From NCBI GenBank assembly GCA_903960915.1, contig CAJCCO010000070.1, forward strand, positions 1 through 64,000: a DNA stretch of 64,000 nt, in the 5' to 3' direction. Made by a program: the position numbers and the translations under genes. The stretch comes from an uncultured beta proteobacterium (GTDB lineage Bacteria; Pseudomonadota; Gammaproteobacteria; Burkholderiales; Burkholderiaceae_C). Shown one piece after another: positions 7,183 to 22,147 of this stretch. Within the stretch, counting starts at the first letter, position 1. Every line of letters starts with the position of its first letter. The notes beneath the pieces are model-generated. The model had not been told where the DNA came from, searched no databases, and worked only from the letters and a program-made list of their open reading frames with translations.

Positions 7183-9135
7183 TTAAAGCGTAGCCGTCTG
7201 CCCAGCTTGATAACCCTGCACGTGCTGCGCCAAAAAGCTCTTGATGGACGCCACATTACCGTTGCGGGCGTCCGCCTCAAAAGACTGCAGTTGGGCCTGC
7301 AATTGCGGCCAGGGCACAAAGGGCTCGTGTGCTTTCATGATGCGCGGGTGCGCGGTGCGCTCGGGGTTGTCGCCAATGAGCAGCTCTTCGTAGAGCTTTT
7401 CACCGGGGCGCAAGCCGGCAATGGCAATTTCAATGTCGCCGCCAGGGTTCTGGCCGTCTCGCACCGTCATACCGCTCAACGTAACAATGCGCCGCGCCAG
7501 GTCCATGATCTTGACCGGCTCACCCATGTCCAGCACAAACACATCACCCCCCACCGCCATGGCGCCGGCCTGCAGCACCAGTTGCGCCGCCTCAGGGATG
7601 GTCATGAAGTAGCGCGTGACTTCTTCGTGCGTCACGGTGAGCGGGCCACCAGCGGCCAACTGCTTGCGAAACAGGGGCACCACGCTGCCGCTGGAGTCCA
7701 GCACATTGCCAAACCGCACCATGGTGAAGCACGTGGCCGAAGGCTCGCTGGCCAAGGCCTGCAACACCAGCTCGGCCACCCGCTTGCTGGCGCCCATCAC
7801 GTTGGTGGGGCGCACCGCTTTGTCGGTAGACACCAGCACAAAACGGCTAACCCCGTGGGCTTGCGCAGCGCGCGCCATGTTGAGCGTACCAAACACGTTG
7901 TTGGTAATGCCCTCGCCGGGGTTGTCTTCGACCATGGGCACATGCTTGTAGGCCGCGGCGTGGTAGACGGTATCGGGCCGGTAGCTGTCGCACAAGGCCA
8001 GTAGCCTTGGGTAGTTGGCCACGCTGCCCAACAAGGGCACCAGCTCAACGGTTAAGCCGCTGGTGGCGCACACGCCTTGCAGTTCTTGGTGAATGCTGTA
8101 AAGCCCAAACTCGTTGTGGTCGAGCAGCAGCAACTGGCGCGGGCGCTGCAACAAAATTTGCCGCGTCAGCTCGCCGCCAATGCTGCCACCGGCACCGGTT
8201 ACCAGCACCACCTTGCCCGCCAGGTCGCGCGCCAACAGGGCGGCATCGGGCGGCACCGGGTCGCGCCCTAGCAGGTCTTCAACATCGAGCTCACGAATAT
8301 CTTGCACCGTGACCCGGCCGCTGGCCAGGTCGGAGAGACCCGGCAGGGTGCGAATGTGCACCGGCAGCTTACGCAGCTCGTCCAGAATTTGTTTGCGCCG
8401 CTCGCGGCTGGCGCTGGGCAGGGCCAGCAAAATGTCGGTCACGCCTTGTTGGGCCACCAGGCTGGGCACATCGGCCGCCCTGAACACCGGCACGCCATTG
8501 ATGGTGCGCCCGGTTTTACTACTGTCGTCGTCCACAAAGCCCAAGAGCGCAAATTGGTTAGACAGCGCCAAAGCAGCCGCTGTTTGCACCCCCGCAGTAC
8601 CGGCACCAAAGATCAACAAGCGGGCATCGGTGCTGCGGCGCGCCCCTTCCAGGTCGGCCAGCCAGAAACGGGCCAGCGCCCGGCTGCCGCCCACCAAGAA
8701 TAAGAATATCAAAGGCTGAATAACCCCCAGGCTGCGCGGCACGCCCGTCCAGGCTTGCCCCACCAAAATAGCCGTCAACAATACGCTGTAGAGCAGCACC
8801 GCCTGGCCGGTGGCATACAAAGCGGCCTGCCCGGTGTACCGAAAAATAGCGCGGTACAAACCGAACTTTAGAAAGATGGGAATAGACAACAAGGGCGCCA
8901 AGCCATACATCCACCACTGCGCGCCGGTAGGCACGTGGGGCGCATCCAGACGCAGAGTAAATGCCAGCCAGGTAGCCGCCAGCGCCATGACCAAGTCAAG
9001 CACCACCACAATGGCACTTTTAACGGGCCGTGCCCAGGCAATAACTTGGCTTTGCATGACTACCTTTTGTGCTTTTTTGACCGACAGCAACGCATTTTTA
9101 AAAGACGCAATTATTACCGAATTGAAATTATCCAT
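7183..9135 (-). CDS. Membrane-anchored nucleotide-sugar 4,6-dehydratase (CapD/WbpM/FlaA1 family)
   Basis: Converts a UDP-HexNAc to the 4-keto-6-deoxy sugar, the entry to QuiNAc-, FucNAc- or bacillosamine-type residues. The N-terminal quarter has hydrophobic membrane segments. A first Rossmann-like CoA-binding domain (LLIFGAGTAGVQ) follows, then the SDR domain with VLVTGAGGSIGGE, YHAAAYKHVPMVEDNP and VSTDKAVRPTNVMGASKR. The classic Tyr of SDRs is replaced by Met in this STDK...MGASK arrangement, which is usual for WbpM/CapD. The ATG at 9135 gives 650 residues. An internal ATG at 9057 (MQSQVIAW) has the better ribosome-binding site (AAAAGGTAGTC) and may be the true start. Followed by argB. Confidence 0.92.
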   Translation of the reverse strand: MDNFNSVIIASFKNALLSVKKAQKVVMQSQVIAWARPVKSAIVVVLDLVMALAATWLAFTLRLDAPHVPTGAQWWMYGLAPLLSIPIFLKFGLYRAIFRYTGQAALYATGQAVLLYSVLLTAILVGQAWTGVPRSLGVIQPLIFLFLVGGSRALARFWLADLEGARRSTDARLLIFGAGTAGVQTAAALALSNQFALLGFVDDDSSKTGRTINGVPVFRAADVPSLVAQQGVTDILLALPSASRERRKQILDELRKLPVHIRTLPGLSDLASGRVTVQDIRELDVEDLLGRDPVPPDAALLARDLAGKVVLVTGAGGSIGGELTRQILLQRPRQLLLLDHNEFGLYSIHQELQGVCATSGLTVELVPLLGSVANYPRLLALCDSYRPDTVYHAAAYKHVPMVEDNPGEGITNNVFGTLNMARAAQAHGVSRFVLVSTDKAVRPTNVMGASKRVAELVLQALASEPSATCFTMVRFGNVLDSSGSVVPLFRKQLAAGGPLTVTHEEVTRYFMTIPEAAQLVLQAGAMAVGGDVFVLDMGEPVKIMDLARRIVTLSGMTVRDGQNPGGDIEIAIAGLRPGEKLYEELLIGDNPERTAHPRIMKAHEPFVPWPQLQAQLQSFEADARNGNVASIKSFLAQHVQGYQAGQTATL

Positions 9136-9299
9136 AGTCAAAAGCCTATGGAATTAGGTGAGCAACTTAGCGGACGAATAGAAAGTTCATTTTATAAACC
9201 ATCAGCTATGAAACCATAGCCGCCCCATAAAATGCCGTTCAGTGTGACACGCCATCCCGGCGCAACACCTTGGCAAAAGTCAGCCACAAAATGTGAAGG

Positions 9300-10526
9300 T
9301 CAAGTCCCAGGGCTGGCGCTAGCCTCGGCAAGTACCATACCTGCAACTTCGCAAGTCAAGTCAAGCTCTTTCTTTGTAAGAGTCGGATGCACCAAAAACA
9401 TGATCGAAGTTTCACCAAGCTCACGGGCAGACGGCATACGCTCTGTTGGACGCCAACCGGTGCCATCGAAAGCTTTCTCTAGGTAGACCTCAGAGCAAGA
9501 GCCTTGGTAGCAGGGTACGCCTTGGGCGCTGATAGCTTGCACAATCCGGTCGCGACTCCACCCCGTTGCGAGTTTCTCAGGCCGCACGTAGACGTAGCAC
9601 TTGTAGTGCGCATGCTCACAGCCGCTACGTGAAGCACAGGCGGCGTTACACGCGCCCGCGTTGCAACCGAACGCAGGCACTCGCGCTGCCGCATGTTGGC
9701 GACAAGCAGCCCAAATGAATTGCGCATTCTCCGTGCGCTTGGCAGTCCAGTCCTGCATACGGCGTAATTGAATACGTCCAATAGCCGCCTGCATCTCCAG
9801 CATGCGCCAGTTGGTGCCAAAACTTTCGTGCACCCAGCGAAACCCTGGAGGGTGCTCCCGTTCGTACACCGCTTCATAACTCTTGCCATGGTCTTTGTAT
9901 GACCACATAGCGCGCCAAAGGGCTTCGTCGTTAGTGGTAACCATGCCACCCTCACCGCCGGTGCTCATTATTTTGTCTTGGCAAAAACTCCAGGCGCCCG
10001 CGTGTCCGATCGATCCCACGCTGCGGCCTTTATACCGAGCGCCATGCGCTTGCGCACAATCTTCAATCACCTTAAAGCCATGTTGGTCTGCTTGCGCCAT
10101 GATCGGATCCATATCGCAGGGCCAACCGGCCAGGTGCACGCAGATCACAGCCTTGGTCCGGTGGGTGACCACTTTTGCAATGGTGGCTGCCGATATATTG
10201 CCGCTGTCCAACTCCACATCAGCAAACACGGGGACAGCTCCAGCATTGACCACGCAAGAAATACTTGCAATAAAGGTACGCGGCGTCACCACCACTTCAT
10301 CACCAGGTCCAATGCCCATTGCTTGCAACGCCACATCCAGCGCAAGCGTGCCATTGGCCAGCGCCACGGCATGCGCCGTGCCACACCAAGCGGCAAATTC
10401 TTTTTCAAAGTTGCGGGTCTCGGTGCCCGTCCAGTAGTTCACCTTGTTGGACATCACCACGCGGTGCACCGCATCGGCCTCTTCGGGGGTGAAACTGGGC
10501 CAGGGGGAAAAGGGAGTATTCAGCAT
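9300..10526 (-). CDS. PLP-dependent DegT/DnrJ/EryC1-type sugar aminotransferase
   Basis: Transfers an amino group to a keto-sugar nucleotide; next to the 4,6-dehydratase the expected product is a UDP-4-amino-4,6-dideoxy-GlcNAc/GalNAc (PglE-like role). The presumed PLP lysine is Lys185 in SFCQDKIMSTGGEGG. VIEDCAQAHGA (about 153-163) and NWRMLEMQAAIGRIQL are family motifs. Odd feature: between about residues 275 and 310 there is a cysteine-rich stretch (Cys275, 288, 293, 297, 303, 310) where I would expect a short link to the HAxYK motif. It is followed by an acetyltransferase and sugar transferase in the PglD/PglC arrangement (transcriptionally upstream). Confidence 0.9.
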   Translation of the reverse strand: MLNTPFSPWPSFTPEEADAVHRVVMSNKVNYWTGTETRNFEKEFAAWCGTAHAVALANGTLALDVALQAMGIGPGDEVVVTPRTFIASISCVVNAGAVPVFADVELDSGNISAATIAKVVTHRTKAVICVHLAGWPCDMDPIMAQADQHGFKVIEDCAQAHGARYKGRSVGSIGHAGAWSFCQDKIMSTGGEGGMVTTNDEALWRAMWSYKDHGKSYEAVYEREHPPGFRWVHESFGTNWRMLEMQAAIGRIQLRRMQDWTAKRTENAQFIWAACRQHAAARVPAFGCNAGACNAACASRSGCEHAHYKCYVYVRPEKLATGWSRDRIVQAISAQGVPCYQGSCSEVYLEKAFDGTGWRPTERMPSARELGETSIMFLVHPTLTKKELDLTCEVAGMVLAEASASPGT

Positions 10527-10535
10527 CTTGTCTCT

Positions 10536-11192
10536 TCAGTTTTTGATCAAAGGCCGCGCCGGATTACCCACCACCGTCACGCCCGGTGGCACGCTCTTGG
10601 TCACTACCGCGCCCATGCCCACCACCGCGCCACGGCCAATGACCAAAGGTGCGCCGGGCAGACCCTGTTTGATGACGGCACCCGTGCCAATGTAGGCATG
10701 GTCTTCAACGTGCACATTGCCGTTGCACATCACGCCCGGGGCAAAAGTCACAAAGTCGCCCACCACGCAATCGTGCTCGACATAGCTGTAAATGTTGGCG
10801 TGAAAATGTTGGCCAATGCGGATGTTGCTGGTCAGCGTGACAAAGGGGGACAAGATGGCACCCTCACCCAGCTGCACATCGTCGAGCTGCACTACATTGG
10901 CCGCACGCACCTCAAAAAAATGCACCCCATCCGCCGCGCAGCGCTGCACAAGCTGCTCACGAACGCGGCTGTTGGCAATGGCTACATTCATGTGGCGACT
11001 GCTTGCGGGCTCGCTCAGCCAATGCGCATAAGTCAATACCCGCTGCCCGTTCACCACTGGCGCTGGCGGGTGGTCGTCCACAAACACCAAGTCGGTGCGG
11101 CCCGCCGCCAAATCGTCTTGCAACTGCTGGCGCACCAAAGGCAACACGCCACGGCCACATCCACTGGCCCCAAAAATGGCAAAGCGTTTCAA
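10536..11192 (-). CDS. Sugar O/N-acetyltransferase, PglD/NeuD family
   Basis: A 218-residue left-handed beta-helix acetyltransferase with an N-terminal Rossmann-like domain (FAIFGASGCGRGV) and C-terminal hexapeptide repeats (IGQHFHANIYSYVEHD, FVTFAPGVMCNGNVHVED, IGTGAVIKQGLPG). PglD homologues acetylate the 4-amino group of UDP-4-amino-4,6-dideoxy-GlcNAc to give UDP-bacillosamine; that role is inferred from the adjacent aminotransferase and sugar transferase. Its start overlaps the stop of the sugar transferase by 4 bp, indicating translational coupling. An alternative is acetylation of another amino sugar of the repeat unit. Confidence 0.9.
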   Translation of the reverse strand: MKRFAIFGASGCGRGVLPLVRQQLQDDLAAGRTDLVFVDDHPPAPVVNGQRVLTYAHWLSEPASSRHMNVAIANSRVREQLVQRCAADGVHFFEVRAANVVQLDDVQLGEGAILSPFVTLTSNIRIGQHFHANIYSYVEHDCVVGDFVTFAPGVMCNGNVHVEDHAYIGTGAVIKQGLPGAPLVIGRGAVVGMGAVVTKSVPPGVTVVGNPARPLIKN

Positions 11193-11782
11193 GACTTATC
11201 CCCCTCAAATCTTGGCATCGTCGCCTCCCCCAGCGCACTGATACCATCACGCACCAGCACCTTGCGCACCGTCAGTAACAAAATGCGCACATCCAGCCAC
11301 AGGCTGCGGTTGTCCACATACCAAACGTCCAGCGCAAATTTTTCGGGCCAGCTGATCGCGTTGCGGCCATTAACCTGCGCCCAGCCCGTGATGCCCGGTC
11401 GCACCTCGTGGCGACGGGCCTGCTCAGGCGAATACAGCGGCAAATATTCCATCAACAGTGGGCGTGGTCCCACTAGGCTCATATCACCCTTCAGAACATT
11501 CCACAGCTCGGGTAATTCGTCTAGGCTGCTGGCGCGCAGAAAGCGACCAAAAGCGGTGAGTCGGACCGCATCCGGCAGCAGCTGGCCATCGGACCCACGC
11601 GCGTCCGTCATGGTGCGGAACTTGACCATCTTGAACGACTGCCCCTTGAGCCCCGGCCGTACCTGGCAAAACATCACCGGGCTGCCCAGTTTCCAACGAA
11701 CAAAACAGGCCAGCACCAACAGCGGCAAAGCCATGAGCAGCAAAGCCAGTGCCGCAACCAATAAGTCAAATGATCGTTTCAT
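11189..11782 (-). CDS. Initiating sugar-1-phosphate transferase (PglC/WcaJ C-domain type)
   Basis: Transfers a sugar-1-phosphate from UDP-sugar to undecaprenyl phosphate, starting the repeat unit at the cytoplasmic membrane. At 197 residues it is the small monotopic PglC-like form without the multi-pass N-terminus. One N-terminal hydrophobic segment (LLVAALALLLMALPLLVLACFV) is followed by VKFRTM, then ASSLDELPELWNVLKGDMSLVGPRPLL, the polyprenyl-phosphate sugar transferase signature with the DE dyad. With the neighbouring PglD/PglE-like genes the likely first sugar is a diacetamido-trideoxyhexose. Confidence 0.94.
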   Translation of the reverse strand: MKRSFDLLVAALALLLMALPLLVLACFVRWKLGSPVMFCQVRPGLKGQSFKMVKFRTMTDARGSDGQLLPDAVRLTAFGRFLRASSLDELPELWNVLKGDMSLVGPRPLLMEYLPLYSPEQARRHEVRPGITGWAQVNGRNAISWPEKFALDVWYVDNRSLWLDVRILLLTVRKVLVRDGISALGEATMPRFEGDKS

Positions 11783-11800: not shown

Positions 11801-13033
11801 TCAAGTCGGTACAGTTCTACCGAGCATGATGTCAAGATAATCCGCAGCCAACTTTGGGTATCGCCTGTTTTCAAGCAACCAGATTTTTCCTCTCATCCCA
11901 ATCAAGCGCCGTTCTTGTTCAGTCATCTGGGCGTATCTATCAATTTCCTTCCAAAGTGTAGTCACATCGCCTGCAGGCACATAGCTCCCACAATTTGCCT
12001 CATTGATCATGGTCGGAAAGCCGGTGTACGAAGCTACTATCGGCTTGCCTGCCATCATGTAGTCAATCACCTTGTTCAAGGATTGGCCATAAAGCCAAAC
12101 CTTTGAAATGTGCACAGAAAAATACAGTAAGTCACACTTATACAAGACCGACTGCACTATGGGTTTGGCTACGCGTGGCGCAAAAGTTAAATTGACCAGG
12201 TGCCCATACTTGGTCCGATACGCCTCGCGCAGGTCACCATCGCCCACCACCAGGAAGTGAATATGCGGATTAGTTTGCATGGCGACGGCGCATTCGAGAA
12301 AAGTTTCAAGCGCATTGGTAATGCCGATAGACCCCACATGGGCCACGATGAATTTGTTTTTCGGAAAATTCAACTTTTCGTATTCAACAGGCAAGACCGC
12401 ATCCGCAGTAAGCATGCTTTCGTCCACTCCCATCGGAATGCAGTGAGTTGGTCGTGGGTAACCCAGCACATTACGCACATGCTCGCCTAGGTTAGGCATG
12501 GTTCCAACGATGGCATCAGCATGTTTGTAACCCAAACGCTCCACAACACCCAAACCCCATACAAAAGGGTTAGAGGTCTTGAACCCTCCCTCTTCGGTGA
12601 GGGTCAGTGGCCAAATATCACGAATTTCAAAAACCAAACGGCACTTGTACCGAAAACGCCACCAAAACCCATTAAAGATCGTCAGCAAGGAAAGGCTGGA
12701 CACCACCACCACATCTGGGTTGGGCAACTTACTTGTTGGTAACCACAGCAAGCACCACTCAAAATGCAGCCAGCTAAGTATGCGGCGCACCGACTTGGCC
12801 ACTGTGTATTTCATGGTGCGCACCCAGCAAAGCACAATGCCGTCCAACTCTTGAAACAAATAGTCAGACTCCAAAGACGGCGGCGCAGCCAACTGATTCG
12901 AGTCTGATGTGATGATTACCACCTTATGTCCCATCTTGGCCAGCTCCTTCATGAGCGAATAACCCCGGCCGCCCACTGTGCCGCTAGCAGGCGGCGCCAC
13001 GTACTTGGACACATACCAAATGCAAGTGCTCAT
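11801..13033 (-). CDS. Glycosyltransferase family 4 (WbuB-like)
   Basis: Retaining GT-B glycosyltransferase, 410 residues, adding a sugar to the lipid-linked repeat unit on the cytoplasmic face. N-terminal acceptor domain: WYVSKYVAPPASGTVGGRGYSL. C-terminal donor domain: FIVAHVGSIGITNALE, then YGQSLNKVIDYMMAGKPIVAS with the E/D-xx-AxGxP pattern. The start at 13033 (MSTCIWYVSK) lies 7 bp after the stop of the fused amidotransferase gene; a longer reading frame upstream would overlap that gene and lacks support. WbuB-like enzymes are associated with FucNAc-type residues in E. coli O-antigens, so an unusual N-acyl sugar is a reasonable donor guess. Confidence 0.9.
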   Translation of the reverse strand: MSTCIWYVSKYVAPPASGTVGGRGYSLMKELAKMGHKVVIITSDSNQLAAPPSLESDYLFQELDGIVLCWVRTMKYTVAKSVRRILSWLHFEWCLLWLPTSKLPNPDVVVVSSLSLLTIFNGFWWRFRYKCRLVFEIRDIWPLTLTEEGGFKTSNPFVWGLGVVERLGYKHADAIVGTMPNLGEHVRNVLGYPRPTHCIPMGVDESMLTADAVLPVEYEKLNFPKNKFIVAHVGSIGITNALETFLECAVAMQTNPHIHFLVVGDGDLREAYRTKYGHLVNLTFAPRVAKPIVQSVLYKCDLLYFSVHISKVWLYGQSLNKVIDYMMAGKPIVASYTGFPTMINEANCGSYVPAGDVTTLWKEIDRYAQMTEQERRLIGMRGKIWLLENRRYPKLAADYLDIMLGRTVPT

Positions 13034-13040
13034 GCGCTGT

Positions 13041-14864
13041 TCAACCCTTGATAAGCTTGGGAATGGCGTTGATAACTGGAATAACTTTGTCAAAGTCCAT
13101 GCCAATGGCATCCAAATACCACTTGATATTAGGGTAACGGGGGCGGTTTTCGTCCTCCACCAAGACCAGCGCTTCTGCGCGGGTCATGTCACCTTCGCGA
13201 ATTTGGTTGCTGCGGAACGTGTCGTGTTCTGTAAAGCCCGCTACCGTGTAATAGATGTAGTTGTAGATGGCAGCCGTGCCGTCGCCAATGCGCCATGTCG
13301 TGTTAGTGTCTGGGGATGTTTCCCAGTCGTACTGGTTGATCAAGGTGTCGTTGATGGTCTTTTCGTCCCAGCGCCAGTAATCAAAGATGTGGTGGTAGTC
13401 GGTCTTTTTATTAAAGCTGCGGTAATACTCCCCCGACAAGGTATCCCACAGTGAACTGTTGAAGTAGCCGGGGCTTTGGGACATCGCCCTCAGGCGAAGC
13501 CACTGGTAGCGCAGCTGCTTCATGGCACCACTGGAATAGACTTTTTCTTCTTCGAAGTCTGGTGGCACACCCAAAAAGCCAGCCTTGAAGTGCGTCACCT
13601 CCAGCGGATTGACACCCCACAGGTTGAGCGAAATACCCGTTTGCTGCCTCACCGTCTCTACATGACGGAAAAAGTGTTTGTCACCAGCCGTCAAAATGCT
13701 CACCATGCCCAGGTGCGGCGACTTCAGCCATGCCTGCAAATTCTTGGCGATATTACGCCGCTTGAGTGCAATGTCGTCGGCCACGATAATGTTTTCAACG
13801 CCCATCTCAGCACACATGCGGCTGATGTTGCGGCGGCCCAAGTCCGTCACCATGCCCCAGTCGTAGGTGTAGGTAATGGGCTTCATCTTCAGTTCCTTGG
13901 CAATCAGGTGCAGGCCGTAGCAGCTGTCGCGCCCACCGGAAAACGGCACAATGCAATCATCACCGTGAGTACGTCTGAATGGCTCTACCAGCTCAAAAAG
14001 CTGCTCCACAGGTTTAGGGCGGTTGCGCGGCTTGTAGGTGTGGCAGTAGTTGCACACACCCGCCTCGTCAAAGCGGATGTAAGTCATTGTCTCGGGCAAG
14101 ATACAACGTGTGCACCGCCGCAAGGTGTATCGCTTGTATTCCAGCATCGCCTCTTCGGCCTTATGCGTGCCAAGGCTGGGTATCAGGTTGGTGGTGCGCT
14201 CCGCATGCTCGTGAACGCTAGGCTCAGCAGCCAGGGGAGGTATGTCAAACACCAACCCTTTATTGCGTACCTGAGTGACAGTTTCACAATTTAGCAGCGT
14301 CAGCGGATAGCGCTCCGAAGCAAAGTAATGCGCACCCTCTTTGGTGCCGTGGTAAAGGCTGCCGTTGTTAGAAAACAAACATAGCTTACCGAGCTTGGGC
14401 AGAGCCAATGCACATGCCACCACCCCCTCACAAAGGCCGAGTACCCGCGAAGCAATGCCATCCACTGACCCACCTTGTTCGAGGTGATCAGCTGCAATGG
14501 CTGCAATGATTTCGGTGTCAATCTCTTGATGCCTATTTTTGCTAACTTGCGCCCACAAGGCGTCGTGGTTCACCACAATGCCGTTGTGAATCACGCAAAC
14601 TCCGTCCCGGTAAACCGGCTGGTTGTCGGCCAAGCCATTAGTAATCAAACGGCTGTGCCCCATCACTATGCCAGTGGTGGCAGTGCTGACATTTTTGAGC
14701 AAGGAGGTAATGGCACTGTTGGCGCGGTGAAGGCCATAGCCCTGGCTGTTGCTGATCAACAGGCCGCTGGAGTCCTTTCCGCGTTGCTCTGAGTGATGAG
14801 CCAACAGTCGAATCTCCTCGACTTTGATGGTTGTATTCGAAATAATCCCGAAAATCCCGCACAT
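13041..14864 (-). CDS. Fused class II glutaminase / N-acetyl-sugar amidotransferase
   Basis: A 607-residue protein that looks like a self-contained amidotransferase. Residues 1-210 are a class II (Ntn) glutamine amidotransferase: nucleophile Cys2 after Met1, GHSR with Arg72, IHNG with Asn94 and Asp116. Residues 245-600 are WbpG/PseA-like: zinc-type cysteine pairs C251/C254 and C271/C274, then a PP-loop ATP-pyrophosphatase motif SGGRDS at 309-314. Expected reaction: hydrolyse glutamine, adenylate an acetamido group of a nucleotide sugar and convert it to an acetamidino group. Standard WbpG enzymes rely on separate HisH/HisF, which this one should not need. Two bases separate it from the upstream wbpI-like gene; seven from the GT downstream. 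Substrate unknown. Confidence 0.87.
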   Translation of the reverse strand: MCGIFGIISNTTIKVEEIRLLAHHSEQRGKDSSGLLISNSQGYGLHRANSAITSLLKNVSTATTGIVMGHSRLITNGLADNQPVYRDGVCVIHNGIVVNHDALWAQVSKNRHQEIDTEIIAAIAADHLEQGGSVDGIASRVLGLCEGVVACALALPKLGKLCLFSNNGSLYHGTKEGAHYFASERYPLTLLNCETVTQVRNKGLVFDIPPLAAEPSVHEHAERTTNLIPSLGTHKAEEAMLEYKRYTLRRCTRCILPETMTYIRFDEAGVCNYCHTYKPRNRPKPVEQLFELVEPFRRTHGDDCIVPFSGGRDSCYGLHLIAKELKMKPITYTYDWGMVTDLGRRNISRMCAEMGVENIIVADDIALKRRNIAKNLQAWLKSPHLGMVSILTAGDKHFFRHVETVRQQTGISLNLWGVNPLEVTHFKAGFLGVPPDFEEEKVYSSGAMKQLRYQWLRLRAMSQSPGYFNSSLWDTLSGEYYRSFNKKTDYHHIFDYWRWDEKTINDTLINQYDWETSPDTNTTWRIGDGTAAIYNYIYYTVAGFTEHDTFRSNQIREGDMTRAEALVLVEDENRPRYPNIKWYLDAIGMDFDKVIPVINAIPKLIKG

Positions 14865-14866
14865 GT

Positions 14867-15949
14867 TTAATCCTTCAGAACATTCACAATTTTTTGCGCT
14901 GCATCTCCTTCGCCATAAGGCTGAATCGGCTGACCTGTACTGCCAAGTGCAGCCTCAATCGCGCTGACAACTGCTCCCGGTGAATTAGGTTTTGCCAGCC
15001 GGTTCCATCCTGCATTGACCAACTCCACCCACTCAGTTTCATCGCGCAGCGTGACGCAGGGCACTTGGTAAAAGAAAGCTTCTTTTTGCACACCACCGGA
15101 ATCTGTTGCGATAAGGGCTGCGTATTTTTCCAGCTGCACCATATCTACATAACCCACCGGGTCGATCAAATGGACGTATCGCGCCAGCGCATCAAGCCGG
15201 CTCGTCTGCTGCAGTACAGCTCGCGTGCGCGGGTGCAACGGCCAGACCACGGGCAGCGTTTGGGCTGTCGCCGTCAGAGCATCCACAATGGCGGCCAAGC
15301 GCTGTGGGTGGTCGGTATTTTCGGCACGGTGAATAGTGGCGAGCACATAGTTTTTTGGCTTGAGACCCAGCAGGGCTAGCAGGCCGCCATCGGCATGTAC
15401 ACGAGCACCGTGGTGCAGCGCCACGTCATACATCACATCGCCCACGGGAATGATTTGCGCCGCCGCAAATCCCTCACGCTTCAAGTGCTCGGCTGCCGTT
15501 GCAGTGGGCGTGAAGAGCCAGCGCGAAATGCGGTCGGTGAGGATGCGGTTGATCTCCTCCGGCATGGCCATGTTGAAGCTGCGCAAACCTGCCTCTACAT
15601 GGGCCACCGGAATATGAAGCTTGGCGGCAGCCAGCGCACCGGCTAGGGTGGAATTGGTGTCGCCATACACCAGCACGGCATCTGGCTTTTCGGCCAGCAG
15701 CACTTTTTCTACATGCTCCAGCATGCGCCCCGTCATGGCGCCATGACTGCCGCCGTGAACATCCAGAAAATGGTCAGGACGGTGCATGCCGAGTTCCTTG
15801 AAAAACACGTCGGACATGTTGGCGTCAAAGTGCTGGCCGGTGTGCACCAGCACTTCTTGCAATTGATTCGACTGGCGCATGGCGTGCGACACCACGCTGG
15901 CTTTGATGAACTGGGGGCGAGCGCCTAAAACGGTGACTATTTTTTTCAT
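14867..15949 (-). CDS. wbpI: UDP-GlcNAc(3NAc)A 2-epimerase, WbpI/WecB family
   Basis: Non-hydrolysing UDP-HexNAc 2-epimerase of 360 residues. Conserved stretches are VLGARPQFIKASVVS, HTGQHFDANMSDVFF, VYGDTNSTLAGALAA, AHVEAGLRSFNMAMPEE and the C-terminal DSGGVQKEAFF. The HGGSHGAMTGRML segment and overall wording resemble WbpI, which acts on UDP-2,3-diacetamido-glucuronate, more than housekeeping WecB. With wbpA/B/D/E present in the same locus, conversion of UDP-GlcNAc3NAcA to UDP-ManNAc3NAcA is the best assignment; plain UDP-ManNAc formation is the alternative. It overlaps the upstream GT4 gene by 4 bp. Confidence 0.9.
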   Translation of the reverse strand: MKKIVTVLGARPQFIKASVVSHAMRQSNQLQEVLVHTGQHFDANMSDVFFKELGMHRPDHFLDVHGGSHGAMTGRMLEHVEKVLLAEKPDAVLVYGDTNSTLAGALAAAKLHIPVAHVEAGLRSFNMAMPEEINRILTDRISRWLFTPTATAAEHLKREGFAAAQIIPVGDVMYDVALHHGARVHADGGLLALLGLKPKNYVLATIHRAENTDHPQRLAAIVDALTATAQTLPVVWPLHPRTRAVLQQTSRLDALARYVHLIDPVGYVDMVQLEKYAALIATDSGGVQKEAFFYQVPCVTLRDETEWVELVNAGWNRLAKPNSPGAVVSAIEAALGSTGQPIQPYGEGDAAQKIVNVLKD

Positions 15950-17061
15950 GATTTAACCCCTGCTAGCAATCGTTCATAAAAAGCCAGCAATTTTTTCTCT
16001 TCCACTTCCCAGTTGTAGCGCGCATCCACAGCACGGCGTCCGTTGGCCCCCATGCGTTGCACTTCTTGCGGGTTCAACACCAAATAATCAATGGCTTCTG
16101 CAATGGCTTGAGGATTCATGGGGTCGACCAACAAACCACAGTCATTGCCGCCGATGATGTTTCGCCAAAGCGGGAAGTCCGATGCAATGACGGGTATGCC
16201 AGCACTCATGTATTCGAACATCTTGTTTGGTTGCGCATCCACATGGTTTGGCAAGGGGTGAAAGGTTACTAATCCCGCCACGGAACGAGACAGCACATTC
16301 CTGACACCATCGCGGTTCACAAATCCATGGGCATCTACACGCTGCCATCCGGGCATGGCGCGAACGGACTGTTCTAGCGCTGCACTTTCAAATCCACCGC
16401 ATAGATTGAGCCGGGCATTGGATTTCACCAAGCCCATGGCCTGACAGACTTCATGAATGCCGCGGATTTGACCAATGCCGCCGACATAGCAGACCTCGGC
16501 CTGTTTGTTGTTCCAGGCTGCATCTGTTGCTAACTCACCCTGCATGGGGAAGTTGTTGATGTCCACCGTATTGGGGTTGATACCCAAAAACTTGTCGCGG
16601 ATGAAAGGCGTGGCCGCAATAACTCCATCCAAACGTCGACAGGCCCAATATTCAAAAATACCGAATACGTTGGCGAGCAACCACAGCGTGGATTTGTTCA
16701 AATAAGATTTACCCAGTATCTGCTTTGGCACGTCTTCATGTGAGTCAAACACCACCCGCTTGCCCATGCTCTTGAGCTTCAAACCTATCGGGATCAGCTC
16801 TGGGTCATGCAGGTGATAAAAATCCGCATCCAGCGTGAGCGCCCTTTGCAACACTCGCCCGGGGGCGCGCGACATCCGGTCAAGCCTCCCGCGCGAAGCG
16901 CCTGCGTCCAGTATTTGCAAGCCGCCACGTACTTCGTCCCCCTTGCCATCCGCCACCACGAGCGATACGGCATGCCCATGAGCCGCCAGGGAAGTGCACA
17001 TCTTGTGGAAGATGCGAATGTCAAAGCGGGGGTGCGCGGAAGTAAGGTGAACAATATTCAT
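15946..17061 (-). CDS. Glycosyltransferase family 4
   Basis: A 371-residue GT-B glycosyltransferase of the locus. N-terminal HPRFDIRIFHKMCTSLAAHG fits acceptor-side GT4 domains acting on lipid-linked sugars. The C-terminal domain has VCYVGGIGQIRGIHEVCQA and KMFEYMSAGIPVIASDFPLW, the EX7E-like donor-binding region. Together with the GT at 11801-13033 it makes two transferases besides the initiating enzyme, which would build a trisaccharide repeat unless others lie elsewhere. The start touches the stop of wbpG by one base and the end overlaps the wbpI-like gene by 4 bp. Confidence 0.9.
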   Translation of the reverse strand: MNIVHLTSAHPRFDIRIFHKMCTSLAAHGHAVSLVVADGKGDEVRGGLQILDAGASRGRLDRMSRAPGRVLQRALTLDADFYHLHDPELIPIGLKLKSMGKRVVFDSHEDVPKQILGKSYLNKSTLWLLANVFGIFEYWACRRLDGVIAATPFIRDKFLGINPNTVDINNFPMQGELATDAAWNNKQAEVCYVGGIGQIRGIHEVCQAMGLVKSNARLNLCGGFESAALEQSVRAMPGWQRVDAHGFVNRDGVRNVLSRSVAGLVTFHPLPNHVDAQPNKMFEYMSAGIPVIASDFPLWRNIIGGNDCGLLVDPMNPQAIAEAIDYLVLNPQEVQRMGANGRRAVDARYNWEVEEKKLLAFYERLLAGVKS

Positions 17062-18251
17062 CAGGAATAGACCTTTAATGTCCTGCCCGTCAGCCTTGCA
17101 AAGATGGCCTGCCCAATTTTGAGGGCGCGATGGTATTTATCCCAGTTTTCAAACTCAGAGTAGTGCCGCGTCGGCGCACGCATCAACTCGTCAAACGTCG
17201 CTCTTGTGATTCTGAGTTTTTTGCAAAGATAATCCATATCAAGCTCAAGCTCATTGGCGTCGTACAAAGGTTTCTTCATTTCTTCCAGCGCCTCCTCGCG
17301 TGACATTTGCCCAGAAGCGATCAGACTGGACAGATGCGGCCGGCGTTTGTCATATCCGAATTTCGCGGGAAGATAATAATTCTGGAAAAGCTTCGTGAAC
17401 TGGGATTCCCCGTGCTTGCGGCCATAGGAGCGCCAGCCAATGGATTTTTCCAGTTCTTCAATTGCTTTTGTCTTGTCATACGCCATGTAATTGAGCGGGC
17501 GCACCGTGCGCATCTTCTTCACAAACGGATACCAGAAGTAGTACTGAAAGAAGCTAATCGTCTTGTAATTGCGCAGCCGACGCTCCCCAAACTTGCGGTG
17601 GATCGCCTTGAGATTGATGGCATCCATCGCGCCTCCAAGCCATGCGCCGGGAAATACCCCCTCTGTTGCAAGATTACCGCCCGAGAGAATGTAACGAATA
17701 CCATTGCTGGTAGCAAAGTGGTACAGGCTCGCAAAGAAAATATGATCCTGCGGGACATCCTGATTTGCAATGCCGGCGCGCAGATACGCGAGGTGCAGAT
17801 CACGCATCTCCTCCCAATCAACCACATGGGTATGAAGATCGTAATTGCAGTGCTTGACGATGGTTTCGATATTCGCCACTGCGAGTTCGCTATTCCAACC
17901 GGCATCCACATGCACAACCAGAGGACGCAAGCCCCATTCGCGCACCTTCAGGGCAAGATAAGAACTATCCACGCCGCCGCTCAGACCCAGTATGCAATCG
18001 TATTCGCGGCCCCGTCCATCCGCCTTCATCTGCGCAACAATGGCCCCCCAGCGCCTCTGGCCCTCTTCGTTGGGGAACCAGTGCTGCCGGCTAATGGATT
18101 CGAATTCTTCGCAATGATTGCAGACACCTCGCTCATTGAAGATGATTTCAGGATCGGTCGTATCCATGATGCACTGGGTGCATATCTGGTGCTTTCGTGA
18201 CAATTCGTTCATTTTCTTGAAATTCAATTTGGGATTTTTACTAACATTCAC
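17061..18251 (-). CDS. wbpG: N-acetyl sugar amidotransferase WbpG
   Basis: Converts an acetamido group of a UDP-diamino-uronic acid to acetamidino, using ammonia delivered by HisH/HisF homologues. The PP-loop SGGVDS lies at residues 91-96 (GTG start at 18251), preceded by two Cys pairs (C24/C27, C44/C47) typical of the family. The GTG start overlaps the upstream wzy stop by one base; an ATG at 18212 (MNELSRKHQ) is an alternative start that still keeps all motifs. HisH- and HisF-like genes lie just upstream of wzy. Base composition is more AT-rich than in the flanking metabolic genes. Confidence 0.92.
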   Translation of the reverse strand: MNVSKNPKLNFKKMNELSRKHQICTQCIMDTTDPEIIFNERGVCNHCEEFESISRQHWFPNEEGQRRWGAIVAQMKADGRGREYDCILGLSGGVDSSYLALKVREWGLRPLVVHVDAGWNSELAVANIETIVKHCNYDLHTHVVDWEEMRDLHLAYLRAGIANQDVPQDHIFFASLYHFATSNGIRYILSGGNLATEGVFPGAWLGGAMDAINLKAIHRKFGERRLRNYKTISFFQYYFWYPFVKKMRTVRPLNYMAYDKTKAIEELEKSIGWRSYGRKHGESQFTKLFQNYYLPAKFGYDKRRPHLSSLIASGQMSREEALEEMKKPLYDANELELDMDYLCKKLRITRATFDELMRAPTRHYSEFENWDKYHRALKIGQAIFARLTGRTLKVYS

Positions 18252-19546
18252 TATTCAAAACTACCAGTCGCATTATGACGGTCAGACTCGTCACATATCA
18301 AAAAAACGATTAATAACAAACCAACACCGGATGATAATAATGCCGTAGTCGCATTTTGCTCAACAAGCAGAACTGCATAAATAAATCCAAGGTACATAAA
18401 TATTTCGTTTCTCATCGCCGCATATACAGAATCAATAAGGAAGAAAACCCCAGCCACGAGCAAGGTGGTCGCGGCAAACATCGGAACACCACCCGAAGCC
18501 AATTGATGTATAAAAGCATTAGTATTAGCATTCGCATCAGGATCATTGAAGTATTCACTTCCCACTAAATAAGTCACACCACCAGGGTAATCAATACCGC
18601 CCCAAAAATCCCAGCCTTGCAGTGGATCATTGAATAGATCGAAATAGGCCGATATCAGCAAGGGTGGCACGCTAAAAAGTCGACGTATAAGATAATCGGC
18701 TACGAAAGAATAATTCATCCACACATATTCTATAAAAAAACCCAGAAAAATAAACAAAACAATTACTTTTATCTTCGTTGATATTTTCGATAATTCATTT
18801 ACCCGCATAGCCCCCCCGAGCAACCACGCCACACCCGCCATCAAAAAATGAGCTTTAACACCAAGAAGATAGAAAAACATAACCGAGCACAGAGCCACCG
18901 TTCCAACTAAGTATCGCTTTCCCGTCAAACCAGAATAAAAAGCAATAAATGGCAGTAGACCATTTAAGACCACACTTAAAACATAAGCATCAAGAGCACC
19001 CGTCAGGAATACTTCACGCGCTTCTAGTCGCCTGTCGAGAACCACCATATCGAAGCCGGCCGCCGAAGGTGCATTAAGTGCCACATAAGCCGTTCCGAAA
19101 ATCGCAAAAATATTTAAAGCACCGACCAGCCTATCGGTGGATATCAGTCTCGGAAAAAATATCGGTAGCGCCCTATGTGTTGCAAACTTAATTACAATAA
19201 TAGGTATAATAAGTACGCCAATGTTAATCACCATTTTTCCAAATTCGACTGCCCCCATGATTGGATGAAGAACGCTATAAGGCACCAATACCAATAAACC
19301 ATAAAACAAAAAGAAAAAGTCTGACGGCTTTGTTATGGTCAACGGAATAAAGCCGCCCGCAAATAATACAAAAAATATTACGCAGGTCACGTATTCAAAA
19401 CTCAAGATGATCGGCTGATACCCTAGGTATTCATTGGTTTCCTGCAAAAATAATTGATAGGATGCAATGAGTCCGCATGTATATAACATGAGAAATATGG
19501 CCTGCGAAAACCACTTCGCCTTTACTGAAGAAACAAAGATACTCAT
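18251..19546 (-). CDS. wzy: O-antigen polymerase Wzy (predicted)
   Basis: A 431-residue, highly hydrophobic protein with about ten or more predicted membrane segments and a larger polar loop in the second half (about residues 300-350), the layout of Wzy polymerases that join lipid-linked repeat units in the periplasm. Sequence conservation in Wzy is low, so the call rests on topology and position among wzx, wbpG and GTs. The start ATG at 19546 overlaps the hisF-like stop by 4 bp (ATGA). It is the most AT-rich gene of the window, as usual for polymerases specific to one serotype. Confidence 0.8.
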   Translation of the reverse strand: MSIFVSSVKAKWFSQAIFLMLYTCGLIASYQLFLQETNEYLGYQPIILSFEYVTCVIFFVLFAGGFIPLTITKPSDFFFLFYGLLVLVPYSVLHPIMGAVEFGKMVINIGVLIIPIIVIKFATHRALPIFFPRLISTDRLVGALNIFAIFGTAYVALNAPSAAGFDMVVLDRRLEAREVFLTGALDAYVLSVVLNGLLPFIAFYSGLTGKRYLVGTVALCSVMFFYLLGVKAHFLMAGVAWLLGGAMRVNELSKISTKIKVIVLFIFLGFFIEYVWMNYSFVADYLIRRLFSVPPLLISAYFDLFNDPLQGWDFWGGIDYPGGVTYLVGSEYFNDPDANANTNAFIHQLASGGVPMFAATTLLVAGVFFLIDSVYAAMRNEIFMYLGFIYAVLLVEQNATTALLSSGVGLLLIVFLICDESDRHNATGSFE

Positions 19547-20295
19547 CGCTCCAGCCTGAGCCCCTGCGGATAGTTGATTAGGATCCCGCGGAGCTTCCCA
19601 TGAAATACAAACATGCTCCCCGCCGCTACGGCAGAGGCGCAACCTTCGTGAATCGCCTGTGCAAGATGCTCCACGGTGCCCGCCCCCCCGCACGCAACGA
19701 CCGGCACGTTGACCTTGCTGGTTACGCTGCGGATGAGCTCCAAATCGTAGCCGGCCATCATCCCGTCCCGGTCGACACTGTTGAGAAATATCTCGCCAGC
19801 CCCCGCGTCAACCAGATGCCGGATGTGCTCTTCAAGCCCTGTCTTGACTTCAACCGTCGCCGATTTCGAGACAACACGATAGCCGCCAAACAGCGTCTTC
19901 CTCACATCCACCGCACCAGTCACCGCCTGGCTCCCGAAAATATCAGCCGTCGCACGGATGACATCGGTTGATTCGGTGGCCGCCGTGTTGATGACCACCT
20001 TCTCAATGCCACAGCGGATCAGTTTTCGCGCCTGATCCAGGGTTTTGATGCCGCCGCCGTAGGCCACCGGCATGAAGCATTCACCGGCGATTTCGGCCAC
20101 CAGCTCATAGTCGGGCTCACGCCCATCCCGTGATGCGTCAATATCCAAAACGATCAGCTCGTCAACTTCCTTCTCGCTAAAGATGCGCACCGCATTGATC
20201 GGATCCCCCAAATAGATCGGGTCCTTGAACTTGCGGGTTTTGACGAGCCCATGGCCACGCAGCAGCAGGCAGGGAATGACGCGAACTCTTGCCAT
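19543..20295 (-). CDS. HisF-like ammonia-channel subunit for WbpG
   Basis: A 250-residue (beta/alpha)8 protein homologous to the cyclase subunit of imidazole glycerol phosphate synthase. The N-terminal IPCLLLRGHGLVKTRKF replaces the IPCLDV of true HisF, so the catalytic Asp11 position is Leu. Later motifs (VLDIDASRDGREPD, MPVAYGGGIKTLDQA, VPVVACGGAG) are kept. Loss of the cyclase Asp with retained scaffold fits the HisF2 type that passes ammonia from HisH to WbpG, not histidine biosynthesis. The ATG at 20295 overlaps the hisH stop by one base; a longer upstream reading frame would overlap hisH and is not supported. Confidence 0.9.
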   Translation of the reverse strand: MARVRVIPCLLLRGHGLVKTRKFKDPIYLGDPINAVRIFSEKEVDELIVLDIDASRDGREPDYELVAEIAGECFMPVAYGGGIKTLDQARKLIRCGIEKVVINTAATESTDVIRATADIFGSQAVTGAVDVRKTLFGGYRVVSKSATVEVKTGLEEHIRHLVDAGAGEIFLNSVDRDGMMAGYDLELIRSVTSKVNVPVVACGGAGTVEHLAQAIHEGCASAVAAGSMFVFHGKLRGILINYPQGLRLER

Positions 20296-20906
20296 CAGCT
20301 GTTCCTCGCAAACTGCCCCAGCAATTGCTTGCCATAGCGGTGGCTTTTTTCCGGATGGAACTGCACGCCAGCGATATTGCTCACGCACACCGCCGCCGCG
20401 AAATCCAGGCCGTAATGCGCCGTGAGCAGCACATCCTGCGGATTGGCGGCATGCATATAGTAACTGTGTACGAAATAAAAGCGGGCGTCGTCGTCCATGC
20501 CTTGCAGAAGAGGATGATCAGGCGCATTCCGTCTGACATGACACCAACCCATGTGGGGAATCCGCAAACCCGGCAGGGCAGGAAAGCGCTTGACCTGCAT
20601 GTCGATCCAGCCGAGCCCCGGATCACTGCCCTCTTCGCTACCGTTGCCCAGCATTTGCGCGCCAACACAAATACCCAGCAGCGGTGTTTTTTCATGCAGC
20701 ACCCGCTCTTCAAGCAGCGGGATCAAGCCGGTAGCGCGCAGCCCCTGCATACATGCGTCAAAGGCACCGTTGCCTGGCAGGACAATTTTTTCGGCCCGTC
20801 GAATTTTCTCAATGTCAGAGGTGATTTCGCACACCACCCCCAGCCGCTTGAACATATTGGCAACGGCCGCTAGGTTACCAATGGCGTAATCAATAACGGT
20901 AATCAT
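20295..20906 (-). CDS. HisH-like glutaminase subunit for WbpG
   Basis: Class I glutamine amidotransferase of 203 residues that hydrolyses glutamine and feeds ammonia to the HisF-like partner. Nucleophile Cys80 lies in LLGICVGAQMLG and the His-Glu pair in VQFHPEKSHRYG near the C-terminus. N-terminus MITVIDYAIGNLAAV is typical of HisH. The start at 20906 overlaps the wzx stop by 4 bp. Co-location with wbpG and the cyclase-dead HisF homologue argues for sugar amidination (HisH2 role), not the histidine pathway. Confidence 0.92.
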   Translation of the reverse strand: MITVIDYAIGNLAAVANMFKRLGVVCEITSDIEKIRRAEKIVLPGNGAFDACMQGLRATGLIPLLEERVLHEKTPLLGICVGAQMLGNGSEEGSDPGLGWIDMQVKRFPALPGLRIPHMGWCHVRRNAPDHPLLQGMDDDARFYFVHSYYMHAANPQDVLLTAHYGLDFAAAVCVSNIAGVQFHPEKSHRYGKQLLGQFARNS

Positions 20907-22147
20907 GCGGGCTTTCCCTTGCTGTAGCGGTAGGACAAAACCAGATACACAACATACAGGCAGGCATACCCGACTGCGTACGCCTTGATCGATACCTGAA
21001 AACTGCCCGGGTGCATGAATGCCGCCAGCGTCATGGCCAGCAGGGCGCATTGCCAAACCAGGTCAACCTGCTGCTTGCCCGCGATGTAAAAAACATAGCT
21101 CATTGGACTGGCGACAAAACGCATCGCAAACATCGGCATCAGCCATACTGCAATTGTTCCTGCAGCGCGCCATTGCTCTCCGAACGCCAACGTAAAAAGG
21201 TCTTCACTGAAAAAGCCGATCGCTACTGCAGCCCCCACCGAACCTAGCGCCAACACCTGCAGGGTCTGTAGGTATTCATTCCTGCACTCGCTGCGGTCGC
21301 GGAATGCAGCGGCAGCCTGACGCTTAAATACATCCAAAACGGCCACCCCCAATAGCGCAATTGGTGCACCCAGGGTCCGAAGTGCGAGTGCCAGCAGCCC
21401 GGCCACGTCGTTACCAAAGCGGCTGGCCACTAGAAGCAACGGAAGCTGGCTAGCTGCGGCATTCACCGAATCGGCCGGCAATGACAGCATCGGAAAACGG
21501 CAGTGCCGTCGCAGGAAATCGCGTCGCGCTCCAGACTCGGCCGGTGCACCGAGCGGCATCAAAGTTGCAGCCACCACCGCGCCGAGCAGAACACCGACGC
21601 AGTGCGCCAAACCCAAACTGGCCGCGCTGGGCTCCAGCATACCCGCCCCCAGTTGAATACCGGTAATTCCAGCAGCCTGACTGATTCGCATCCGAATCAG
21701 ATCGGCATAACGACCTTCGGCGGCCGCCCACGATTGCCAGACCTGAGAGGCGGCAATCAGCCACACCGTGGGCGCAAACGCCCATAGCAACGTCAAAGGG
21801 GTGGTTTGTAACCAAGCAGGGGCTAGCGCTGCCAGCAAGGCGGTGAGTACCAGGATGCATCCCGTGGCGACGGTAACGACCAGCAAAACAGCCTGGACGC
21901 CGATACGGCGGGATCCGCCGTCTGGTTCAACCGCAAGCGCGGCCTCGTACCTGCCGGTTACGACCACAGCCGCCAAATACACCACGCCCAGCCAAGCCGC
22001 GAACAATCCAAACTCGGCAGGTGCATACAACCGTGCAAGTAACAGGGAGCCCAATAGCGGGATGGCTTGCGCCATAGCTGTCCCCATAAGGACTGTGGTG
22101 ACCCTACGCCAATAGCCACCCCATCGCTCACCCAGATGAACGCTCAT
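20903..22147 (-). CDS. wzx: O-unit flippase Wzx (polysaccharide biosynthesis protein)
   Basis: A 414-residue integral membrane protein of the MOP/Wzx superfamily, predicted to flip the undecaprenyl-linked repeat unit to the periplasm. Conserved N-terminal features are AQAIPLLGSLLLARLYAPAEFGLFAAWLG and TGRYEAALAVE; about twelve hydrophobic segments follow and the C-terminus is basic (YRYSKGKPA). It overlaps hisH by 4 bp downstream and the acyltransferase by 4 bp upstream. Its presence with wzy and wzz defines a Wzx/Wzy-dependent pathway; no ABC-2 exporter was seen. Confidence 0.88.
   Translation of the reverse strand: MSVHLGERWGGYWRRVTTVLMGTAMAQAIPLLGSLLLARLYAPAEFGLFAAWLGVVYLAAVVVTGRYEAALAVEPDGGSRRIGVQAVLLVVTVATGCILVLTALLAALAPAWLQTTPLTLLWAFAPTVWLIAASQVWQSWAAAEGRYADLIRMRISQAAGITGIQLGAGMLEPSAASLGLAHCVGVLLGAVVAATLMPLGAPAESGARRDFLRRHCRFPMLSLPADSVNAAASQLPLLLVASRFGNDVAGLLALALRTLGAPIALLGVAVLDVFKRQAAAAFRDRSECRNEYLQTLQVLALGSVGAAVAIGFFSEDLFTLAFGEQWRAAGTIAVWLMPMFAMRFVASPMSYVFYIAGKQQVDLVWQCALLAMTLAAFMHPGSFQVSIKAYAVGYACLYVVYLVLSYRYSKGKPA

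What the first reader, a model, noticed from the sequence alone, without database searches (positions are those of the whole stretch)
13041..14864. Single-chain sugar amidotransferase: class II glutaminase fused to a WbpG-like PP-loop enzyme
Seen: Cys2, GHSR, IHNG and Asp116 of an Ntn glutaminase in the first 210 residues, then two Cys pairs and SGGRDS of a WbpG/PseA-type domain, all in one frame. Known WbpG enzymes use separate HisH/HisF for ammonia. The order mirrors asparagine synthetase B (glutaminase then PP-loop) but the second half is an N-acetyl-sugar amidotransferase. Inference: an independent design for making acetamidino sugars.
Basis: partly seen in the sequence, partly recalled or inferred. 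Interest (0 to 1): 0.75.

Follow-up and report, generated by a model that had tools for sequence, protein, structure and literature searches.

The report
Single-chain glutamine-powered sugar amidotransferase
A gene in a bacterial surface-sugar cluster encodes one protein that joins a glutamine-splitting domain to a sugar-modifying domain, apparently doing alone what usually takes three proteins; relatives occur in many kinds of bacteria and in a rare E. coli O-antigen cluster, but its product has not been measured.

Summary
In detail: one intact 607-codon frame joins a class II glutaminase (residues 1-~210) to a WbpG/WbuX-like PP-loop domain with a tetracysteine site (245-607). Catalytic residues of both halves are invariant in 63 aligned sequences, and a confident model (pLDDT 88.9, pTM 0.89) matches solved structures in both halves. 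One genome scan gave 269 relatives; of the 80 kept, 79 match from residue 1 through the PP-loop. Every member tested scores below NCBIfam's WbuX cut-off.

It sits in a UDP-ManNAc3NAcA (wbpA/B/D/E/I) O-antigen-type cluster that also holds a separate WbpG with its own HisH/HisF. Among 50 fusion-bearing genomes, acetamidino-type HisF (over cut-off) occurs in 17 of 18 with a standalone WbpG-type enzyme and in 0 of 32 without, so the fusion apparently needs no HisH/HisF. An E. coli galF-gnd cluster, resembling published descriptions of Escherichia albertii O1, has it as the only annotated amidotransferase.

Best reading: a self-sufficient, glutamine-dependent amidotransferase forming an acetamidino group on a 2,3-diacetamido-2,3-dideoxyuronic acid nucleotide sugar. 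The product is untested; a uronamide is the main rival. New variant of a known kind.

The parts
13041..14864 (-). Fusion gene F: class II glutaminase + N-acetyl-sugar-amidotransferase-like PP-loop domain, 607 aa
14235..14864 (-). Residues 1-210: Ntn class II glutaminase domain
13041..14132 (-). Residues 245-607: tetracysteine + PP-loop (SGGRDS) domain
11801..13111 (-). Glycosyltransferase family 4, coupled partner of F
   Evidence: Pfam Glyco_trans_1_4; its cluster is the next gene downstream in 48 of 78 loci; in 396 phylum genomes, homologues of 50% identity or more only in the 3 that have F
14867..15949 (-). WbpI-like UDP-GlcNAc3NAcA 2-epimerase
   Evidence: PDB 8sxv UDP-2,3-diacetamido-2,3-dideoxy-glucuronic acid 2-epimerase 1.1e-130, against 3.4e-87 for UDP-GlcNAc 2-epimerase 4neq
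15946..17061 (-). Glycosyltransferase family 4
   Evidence: Pfam Glycos_transf_1 4e-20; 54% to a GT of the E. coli cluster
17061..18251 (-). Standalone WbpG/WbuX N-acetyl sugar amidotransferase
   Evidence: TIGR03573 323.4 bits, cut-off 203.2
18251..19693 (-). Protein without family match; Wzy-like by position (inference)
   Evidence: No Pfam or NCBIfam match at E 0.01
19543..20388 (-). HisF2/AglZ acetamidino-modification subunit (mechanical frame; match starts at residue 34)
   Evidence: NF038364 354.5 bits, cut-off 310
20295..21056 (-). HisH glutaminase subunit (mechanical frame; match starts at residue 52)
   Evidence: TIGR01855 216.1 bits, cut-off 105.4
20903..22147 (-). O-unit flippase (Wzx-type)
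   Evidence: Polysacc_synt_3 3.5e-15
22144..24168 (-). Acyltransferase-SGNH protein (O-acylation inferred)
   Evidence: PF01757 and PF19040
24188..25279 (-). WbpE, 3-aminotransferase
   Evidence: PDB 3nyu 'Aminotransferase WbpE' 5.6e-181
25293..25871 (-). WbpD-like 3-N-acetyltransferase
   Evidence: PDB 3mqg 'Lipopolysaccharides biosynthesis acetyltransferase' 2.7e-90
25882..26940 (-). WbpB-like 3-dehydrogenase
   Evidence: PDB 3q2i 'dehydrogenase' 4.1e-179; that this entry is of the pathway is recalled
26969..28267 (-). WbpA-like UDP-GlcNAc 6-dehydrogenase
   Evidence: NF011729 TviB 574.4 bits, cut-off 592 (just below); TIGR03026 381.9 bits, cut-off 189.8
7183..11782 (-). PglF/E/D/C-type genes, probably for the first sugar (inference): dehydratase 7183-9141, aminotransferase 9300-10526, acetyltransferase 10536-11192, glycosylphosphotransferase 11189-11782
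   Evidence: only the acetyltransferase passes a curated cut-off (TIGR03570, 173.5 against 160.8)

Best explanation
F is a self-sufficient glutamine-dependent amidotransferase for a nucleotide-activated 2,3-diacetamido-2,3-dideoxyuronic acid. Cys2 of the N-terminal domain hydrolyses glutamine (inferred from invariant residues and fold); ammonia passes inside the same chain to the C-terminal domain (inferred; no tunnel was examined); there the PP-loop uses ATP to activate the N-acetyl carbonyl of the sugar and ammonia replaces its oxygen, leaving an acetamidino group (inferred from homology to WbpG/NASAT). The adjacent glycosyltransferase (11801-13111) probably transfers the product. The glutaminase domain takes the place of the HisH + HisF pair that WbpG uses. 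In this window both systems are present, so F most likely modifies a different residue, or a different position, than WbpG. Shown: domains, conservation, pathway context, co-occurrence independent of HisF2, pairing with the glycosyltransferase. Not shown: any activity, the tunnel, the exact substrate or the product.
For: Both domains by profile and fold; model pLDDT 88.9, pTM 0.89. Catalytic residues of both halves invariant in 63 rows. Pathway: WbpE and WbpI match solved enzymes named for this pathway, WbpD and WbpB match solved sugar enzymes. A WbpD homologue (E<=1e-20) is in 47 of 50 F genomes, on F's contig in 43, median distance 9.8 kb; at E<=1e-55 in 41 of 50, against 42 of 398 phylum genomes, own included. 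HisF2 over cut-off in 17 of 50 F genomes, all 17 among the 18 with a standalone NASAT; each of the other 32 has at most one HisF-type match at E<=1e-50, under cut-off. Glycosyltransferase pairing. E. coli galF-gnd cluster with F, 69% identical, and no wbpG, hisH, hisF or asnB annotated inside it. It carries a 5' ISAs1 transposase with CTCTG repeats and a central one, much as described for the E. albertii O1 cluster (PMC5622975, passages). [quoted passage not shown] P. aeruginosa O5 carries an acetimidoyl group on one of two ManNAc3N units (PMC10609480 table passage).
Against: No activity is known. WbuX curated cut-off not met (134.3 against 203.2; 118.9-154.9 for F in 50 genomes). A WbpG-HisH-HisF set coexists in the same cluster here, so F is not simply its replacement in this window. 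In L053 HisH and HisF2 lie directly upstream of F, the standalone NASAT being about 19 kb away on the same contig, so a link between F and HisH/HisF is not excluded everywhere. WbpI at E<=1e-90 occurs in only 6 of 50 F genomes, so the substrate may be gluco- rather than manno-configured in most; glucuronamides of this sugar class are documented (PMC3210612, PMC7468200, passages). One of the 3 F genomes in the phylum sample (G634) has no WbpD at E<=1e-55, and none was seen in the 20-kb stretch around its F. The E. albertii O1 structure itself was not seen.
Confidence: 0.6

Rival explanations
1. F is a uronamide synthase: it amidates the C6 carboxylate of the 2,3-diacetamido-uronic acid, doing what AsnB-type WbpS does, with a WbpG-derived PP-loop domain.
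For: AsnB-like domain order; uronamides of this sugar class are known (P. gingivalis linking sugar by WbpS, PMC7468200 passages; Vibrio vulnificus YJ016 GlcNAc3NAcylAN, PMC3210612 passage). WbpG coexists with F in 18 of 85 loci, which suggests a different reaction. WbpI usually not found.
Against: The PP-loop half aligns to WbpG over its whole length (E 6.6e-24) and not to the AsnB synthase domain; the tetracysteine site of the NASAT family is kept; AsnB-type genes also coexist with F in at least 20 of 85 loci (19 by clustering, plus L015).
Confidence: 0.22
2. F acts on another sugar of the cluster, for example the PglF/E/D-derived first sugar, or on the N-acetyl at C2, the uronic-acid pathway being only a fellow traveller.
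For: PglC/F-type genes are common neighbours (glycosylphosphotransferase in 46 and PglF in 34 of 85 loci).
Against: The E. coli cluster has none of these genes between galF and gnd, only the Wbp pathway; WbpD is on F's contig in 43 of 50 genomes.
Confidence: 0.12
3. F and the neighbouring WbpG-HisH-HisF make the same product, F being a redundant or condition-specific alternative (for example when ammonia is scarce).
For: Both sit in one operon-like run in the window and share a homologous domain.
Against: Both systems are kept side by side in 18 of 85 loci, in different phyla; lasting redundancy would be unusual (inference).
Confidence: 0.06

Closest known systems
WbpG / WbuX (NCBIfam TIGR03573), N-acetyl sugar amidotransferase, with LpNASAT 8WEX as solved structure
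   Different: The described members are standalone; F carries its own class II glutaminase, scores below the curated cut-off, and occurs in 32 of 50 genomes without HisF2 over cut-off or a standalone NASAT
Asparagine synthetase B and WbpS-type uronamide synthases
   Same: Class II glutaminase followed by a PP-loop domain in one chain
   Different: Profile comparison with 11 AsnB-type proteins aligns only residues 1-192; the PP-loop half is of WbpG type
GlmS / PurF class II glutaminases
   Different: Their synthase halves are of other folds (recalled)
HisH-HisF2 (AglZ/WbuZ) ammonia supply for acetamidino sugars
   Same: Glutamine-derived ammonia for an N-acetyl sugar amidotransferase (recalled, and the NF038364 family name)
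   Different: Class I glutaminase and TIM barrel as separate proteins; not needed by F as judged by co-occurrence

Membership tests
TIGR03573 WbuX N-acetyl sugar amidotransferase | Curated score cut-off of 203.2 bits | tested here: not met
   134.3 bits; 118.9-154.9 bits for F in 50 genomes; 145.4 bits for the E. coli F
NASAT (N-acetyl sugar amidotransferase) superfamily as described in PMC10607449 | PP-loop SGGxDS | tested here: met
   63 of 63 rows
NASAT superfamily | Tetracysteine CxxC...CxxC motif | tested here: met
   C251, C254 in 63 of 63; C271, C274 in 62 of 63
NASAT superfamily | Fold of 8WEX | tested here: met
NASAT superfamily | Conversion of N-acetyl to acetamidino | not testable with these tools
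   Needs enzymology or NMR
WbpG-HisH-HisF system | Dependence on a separate HisH/HisF pair | tested here: not met
   Co-occurrence only: 33 of 50 F genomes have no HisF2 over cut-off, 32 of these also no standalone NASAT; L053, with HisH-HisF2 beside F, is an exception in position
Class II glutamine amidotransferase (PF13522/PF13537) | Pfam gathering score | tested here: met
   45.5 against 27, and 30.8 against 25 bits
Class II glutamine amidotransferase | N-terminal Cys nucleophile and binding residues | tested here: met
   Cys2, R72, N94, G95, D116 in 63 of 63; their roles are recalled
Class II glutamine amidotransferase | Glutaminase activity | not testable with these tools
   Needs an assay
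Asparagine synthetase B / WbpS | Asn-synthase PP-loop domain after the glutaminase | tested here: not met
   hhalign with 11 AsnB-type rows covers residues 1-192 only; no such Pfam hit at E 0.01

The most novel reading that the evidence does not exclude
F is a single-chain amidine synthase of AsnB-like architecture that arose by fusing a GlmS/PurF-type glutaminase to a WbpG-type domain and spread across bacterial phyla (and into phages) as a stand-alone alternative to the three-protein WbpG-HisH-HisF system; a homologue on a viral contig without the glutaminase suggests that the two halves can also part.
Probability: 0.5. Interest if true: 0.72.

Novelty: new variant of a known kind. Interest (0 to 1): 0.6.

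Why it matters
Acetamidino sugars are charge-altering marks on bacterial surface glycans (recalled), and the known route uses three proteins. A one-protein enzyme would be a simple biochemical tool, would allow study of ammonia channelling into amidine formation, and would let O-antigen chemistry be predicted from genomes where this gene is now labelled 'hypothetical protein', 'glucosamine 6-phosphate synthetase' or '7-cyano-7-deazaguanine synthase'. The small E. coli cluster makes the question directly testable.

Tried and rejected
Frameshift or two separate genes: rejected; one frame in the window, and in the 50 genomes no stop inside the match. Two of the 80 loci (L088, L093) have frames that end early inside the match (503 and 453 aa). 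AsnB orthology: rejected. 'F replaces hisH/hisF in this genome': rejected, both are present. F-WbpI coupling as a general rule: rejected at E<=1e-90, 6 of 50, 4 of these on F's contig; a more diverged epimerase could be missed. F-less clusters with a related glycosyltransferase as a swap test: the two found (31-32% identity) showed no wbpG match in the 20 and 40 kb read, so uninformative. WbpG and AsnB-type genes within F loci: both 2, WbpG only 16, AsnB only 17, neither 50 of 85 (one of the 50, L015, does hold AsnB-type genes); no test made, flanks are cut, not used. In one search I had counted a second gene cluster as AsnB; a check of one member found no family for it, so that figure of 23 is withdrawn. 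A description of this fusion in print: not seen in the titles and abstract starts listed (40 of 103; 5 of 5; 1 of 1; 3 of 3; 10 of 10; 20 of 34; 9 of 9; 25 of 36); most subscription papers are not in the library. The E. albertii O1 structure paper is not held. My gene caller lost F in 6 of 85 loci to longer overlapping frames. Left out of the 63-row alignment: 19 of the 80 genome loci: L041 and L043 cut by contig ends, L088 and L093 broken, several close Chryseobacterium duplicates, the rest without a particular reason.

Full report
OBSERVATION. The reading frame at 13041..14864 on the minus strand encodes 607 residues without a stop. Pfam places a class II glutaminase domain in the first half (GATase_6 E 9.7e-12, above its gathering score). 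NCBIfam places WbuX, N-acetyl sugar amidotransferase, over 250-571 (E 6.4e-39) but at 134.3 bits, under the curated 203.2. In the PDB the best sequence matches are 8wex (N-acetyl sugar amidotransferase) for the second half and GlmS glutaminase for the first.

A REAL FAMILY. One scan of genome contigs with an alignment of six relatives gave 281 pattern stretches, of which 269 encode a relative; the best 80 were kept (L018-L097). Of these 80, 79 match from residue 1 into the PP-loop half and one (L041, 153-606) begins at its contig's edge; L043 ends at residue 591. They are 63-90% identical over the best segment. Two (L088, L093) have frames that end early inside the match. The family is rare within a group: 1 of 300 genomes of the window's order (own) and 3 of 398 of its phylum (own included), all three in frames of 614 codons or more. 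In 63 aligned sequences (window, 61 of the 80 genome loci, one viral contig) Cys2, Arg28, Arg72, Asn94, Gly95, Asp116, Cys251, Cys254 and the whole PP-loop are invariant; Cys271 and Cys274 are kept in 62. A tree of these 63 rows carries titles of 11 phyla and needs 13 changes of label, where 10 is the least; Pseudomonadota alone need 9. This fits one family that has moved between phyla, though wrongly binned metagenome contigs can also give it.

THE CLUSTER. Reading along the minus strand, the window holds wbpA-like (26969-28267), wbpB-like, wbpD-like, wbpE, an acyltransferase-SGNH protein, a flippase, hisH, hisF2, an unassigned (Wzy-like by position) gene, wbpG, a glycosyltransferase, a wbpI-like gene, F, a glycosyltransferase, and PglC/D/E/F-type genes. 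The pathway names were tested: the wbpE gene matches 'Aminotransferase WbpE' at 5.6e-181 and the wbpI-like gene matches UDP-2,3-diacetamido-2,3-dideoxy-glucuronic acid 2-epimerase at 1.1e-130, far better than UDP-GlcNAc 2-epimerase; the wbpD- and wbpB-like genes match solved enzymes (that these are of the same pathway is recalled). The route to UDP-ManNAc3NAcA is as described in PMC10622841 (abstract and passages). That the gene order resembles the P. aeruginosa O5 locus is recalled. Thus two amidotransferase systems, WbpG-HisH-HisF and F, lie in one cluster. The own genome (98.8% complete) has just these two WbuX-type matches.

WHAT F TRAVELS WITH. I chose 50 of the 80 loci, mainly those on longer contigs, for whole-genome searches. 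A WbpD homologue (E<=1e-20) is in 47 of 50; it is on the same contig as F in 43, median distance 9.8 kb, 40 within 25 kb. At E<=1e-55 it is in 41 of 50, against 42 of 398 genomes of the window's phylum, own included. The two sets are not matched by lineage, the 50 were not drawn at random, and one search scored at most 8 first-look candidates per genome where one search scored all, so the background may be somewhat low; the odds ratio of 40 should be read with that in mind. Against: in the phylum sample one of the three F genomes (G634) has no WbpD at E<=1e-55, and a 20-kb stretch around its F showed a WbpE match but no WbpD match. The glycosyltransferase after F is of one cluster in 48 of 78 loci with a called next gene; in 396 phylum genomes a homologue of 50% identity or more occurs only in the three genomes that have F, with two weaker ones (31-32%) elsewhere.

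INDEPENDENCE FROM HISH/HISF. In the same 50 genomes a standalone WbuX-type enzyme over cut-off is in 18, and acetamidino-type HisF2 over cut-off in 17. All 17 lie among the 18 (the exception is G348). None of the 32 genomes with F alone has HisF2 over cut-off; 31 of them have a single HisF-type match at E<=1e-50, under cut-off, and one (G351) has none, as expected if only the histidine enzyme is there. HisF2 therefore follows the standalone enzyme and not F. Two cautions: the cut-off can miss some (in G311 an under-cut-off HisF lies beside a second standalone enzyme), and in L053 HisH and HisF2 lie directly upstream of F, the standalone enzyme being about 19 kb away. F itself scores 118.9-154.9 bits with the WbuX model and standalone enzymes over the cut-off 217.8 or more.

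MECHANISM AND DOUBT. The best reading is glutamine hydrolysis at Cys2, ammonia passing within the chain, ATP-driven activation of an N-acetyl group at the PP-loop (the AMP route is proposed for NASAT in PMC10607449, parts 1 and 2 of 4 read), and formation of an acetamidino group. Every chemical step is inferred. The chief rival is uronamide formation on the same sugar. It gains from the coexistence of F with WbpG in 18 of 85 loci, from the scarcity of WbpI (6 of 50 at E<=1e-90), and from known glucuronamides of this sugar class (PMC7468200, PMC3210612, passages). It loses because the PP-loop half and its tetracysteine site are of NASAT kind and because AsnB-type genes also coexist with F (at least 20 of 85 loci).

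PHAGES. F also lies on two IMG/VR contigs (L004; L005, also fetched as L098 and L106), 56% identical; on L004 it shares the contig with a terminase large subunit (PHROG 3.1e-26). A third IMG/VR contig (L006, also L099 and L105) has the PP-loop half alone (370 aa, 69% identical), with no GATase_6 match in its 119,536 bases; the record may be a fragment, and PHROGs gave no match for this protein.

VERDICT. It is a new variant of a known kind, passes no curated full-length model in the libraries tested, and is directly testable.

Noticed in passing
L004:7035-8861; L005:8001-9827: The fusion enzyme is encoded on IMG/VR contigs; L004 also has a terminase large subunit and, judged by eye, glycosyltransferase- and sulfotransferase-like genes: a possible phage-borne surface-sugar modifier.
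   Followed up: partly
L006:7992-9104: Standalone PP-loop half, 69% identical to the window's, on a 119.5-kb IMG/VR contig without a GATase_6 match: how it gets ammonia is unknown.
   Followed up: partly
L107:5359-22840 (E. coli NZ_CP148493.1): An E. coli O-antigen cluster that resembles the published description of E. albertii O1, in 2 of 5,426 complete E. coli genomes, both from chicken.
   Followed up: partly
L053:8457-10001: HisH and HisF2 lie directly upstream of the fusion gene, although a standalone NASAT lies about 19 kb away on the same contig.
   Followed up: partly
window 22144-24168: Acyltransferase-SGNH protein inside the cluster, suggesting O-acylation of the glycan.
   Followed up: no
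window 28338-29747; 33057-33950: ManC-type nucleotidyltransferase/isomerase and RmlD-type reductase genes upstream of the Wbp genes, with a weak Wzz-type match at 30292-31194.
   Followed up: no
window 40776-46429: Wax ester synthase/DGAT-type protein and an AMP-binding enzyme outside the sugar cluster.
   Followed up: no
L046 and L047: Identical F proteins in contigs labelled Brevundimonas (Caulobacteraceae) and Bryobacterales (Acidobacteriota): very recent transfer or a misbinned contig.
   Followed up: no
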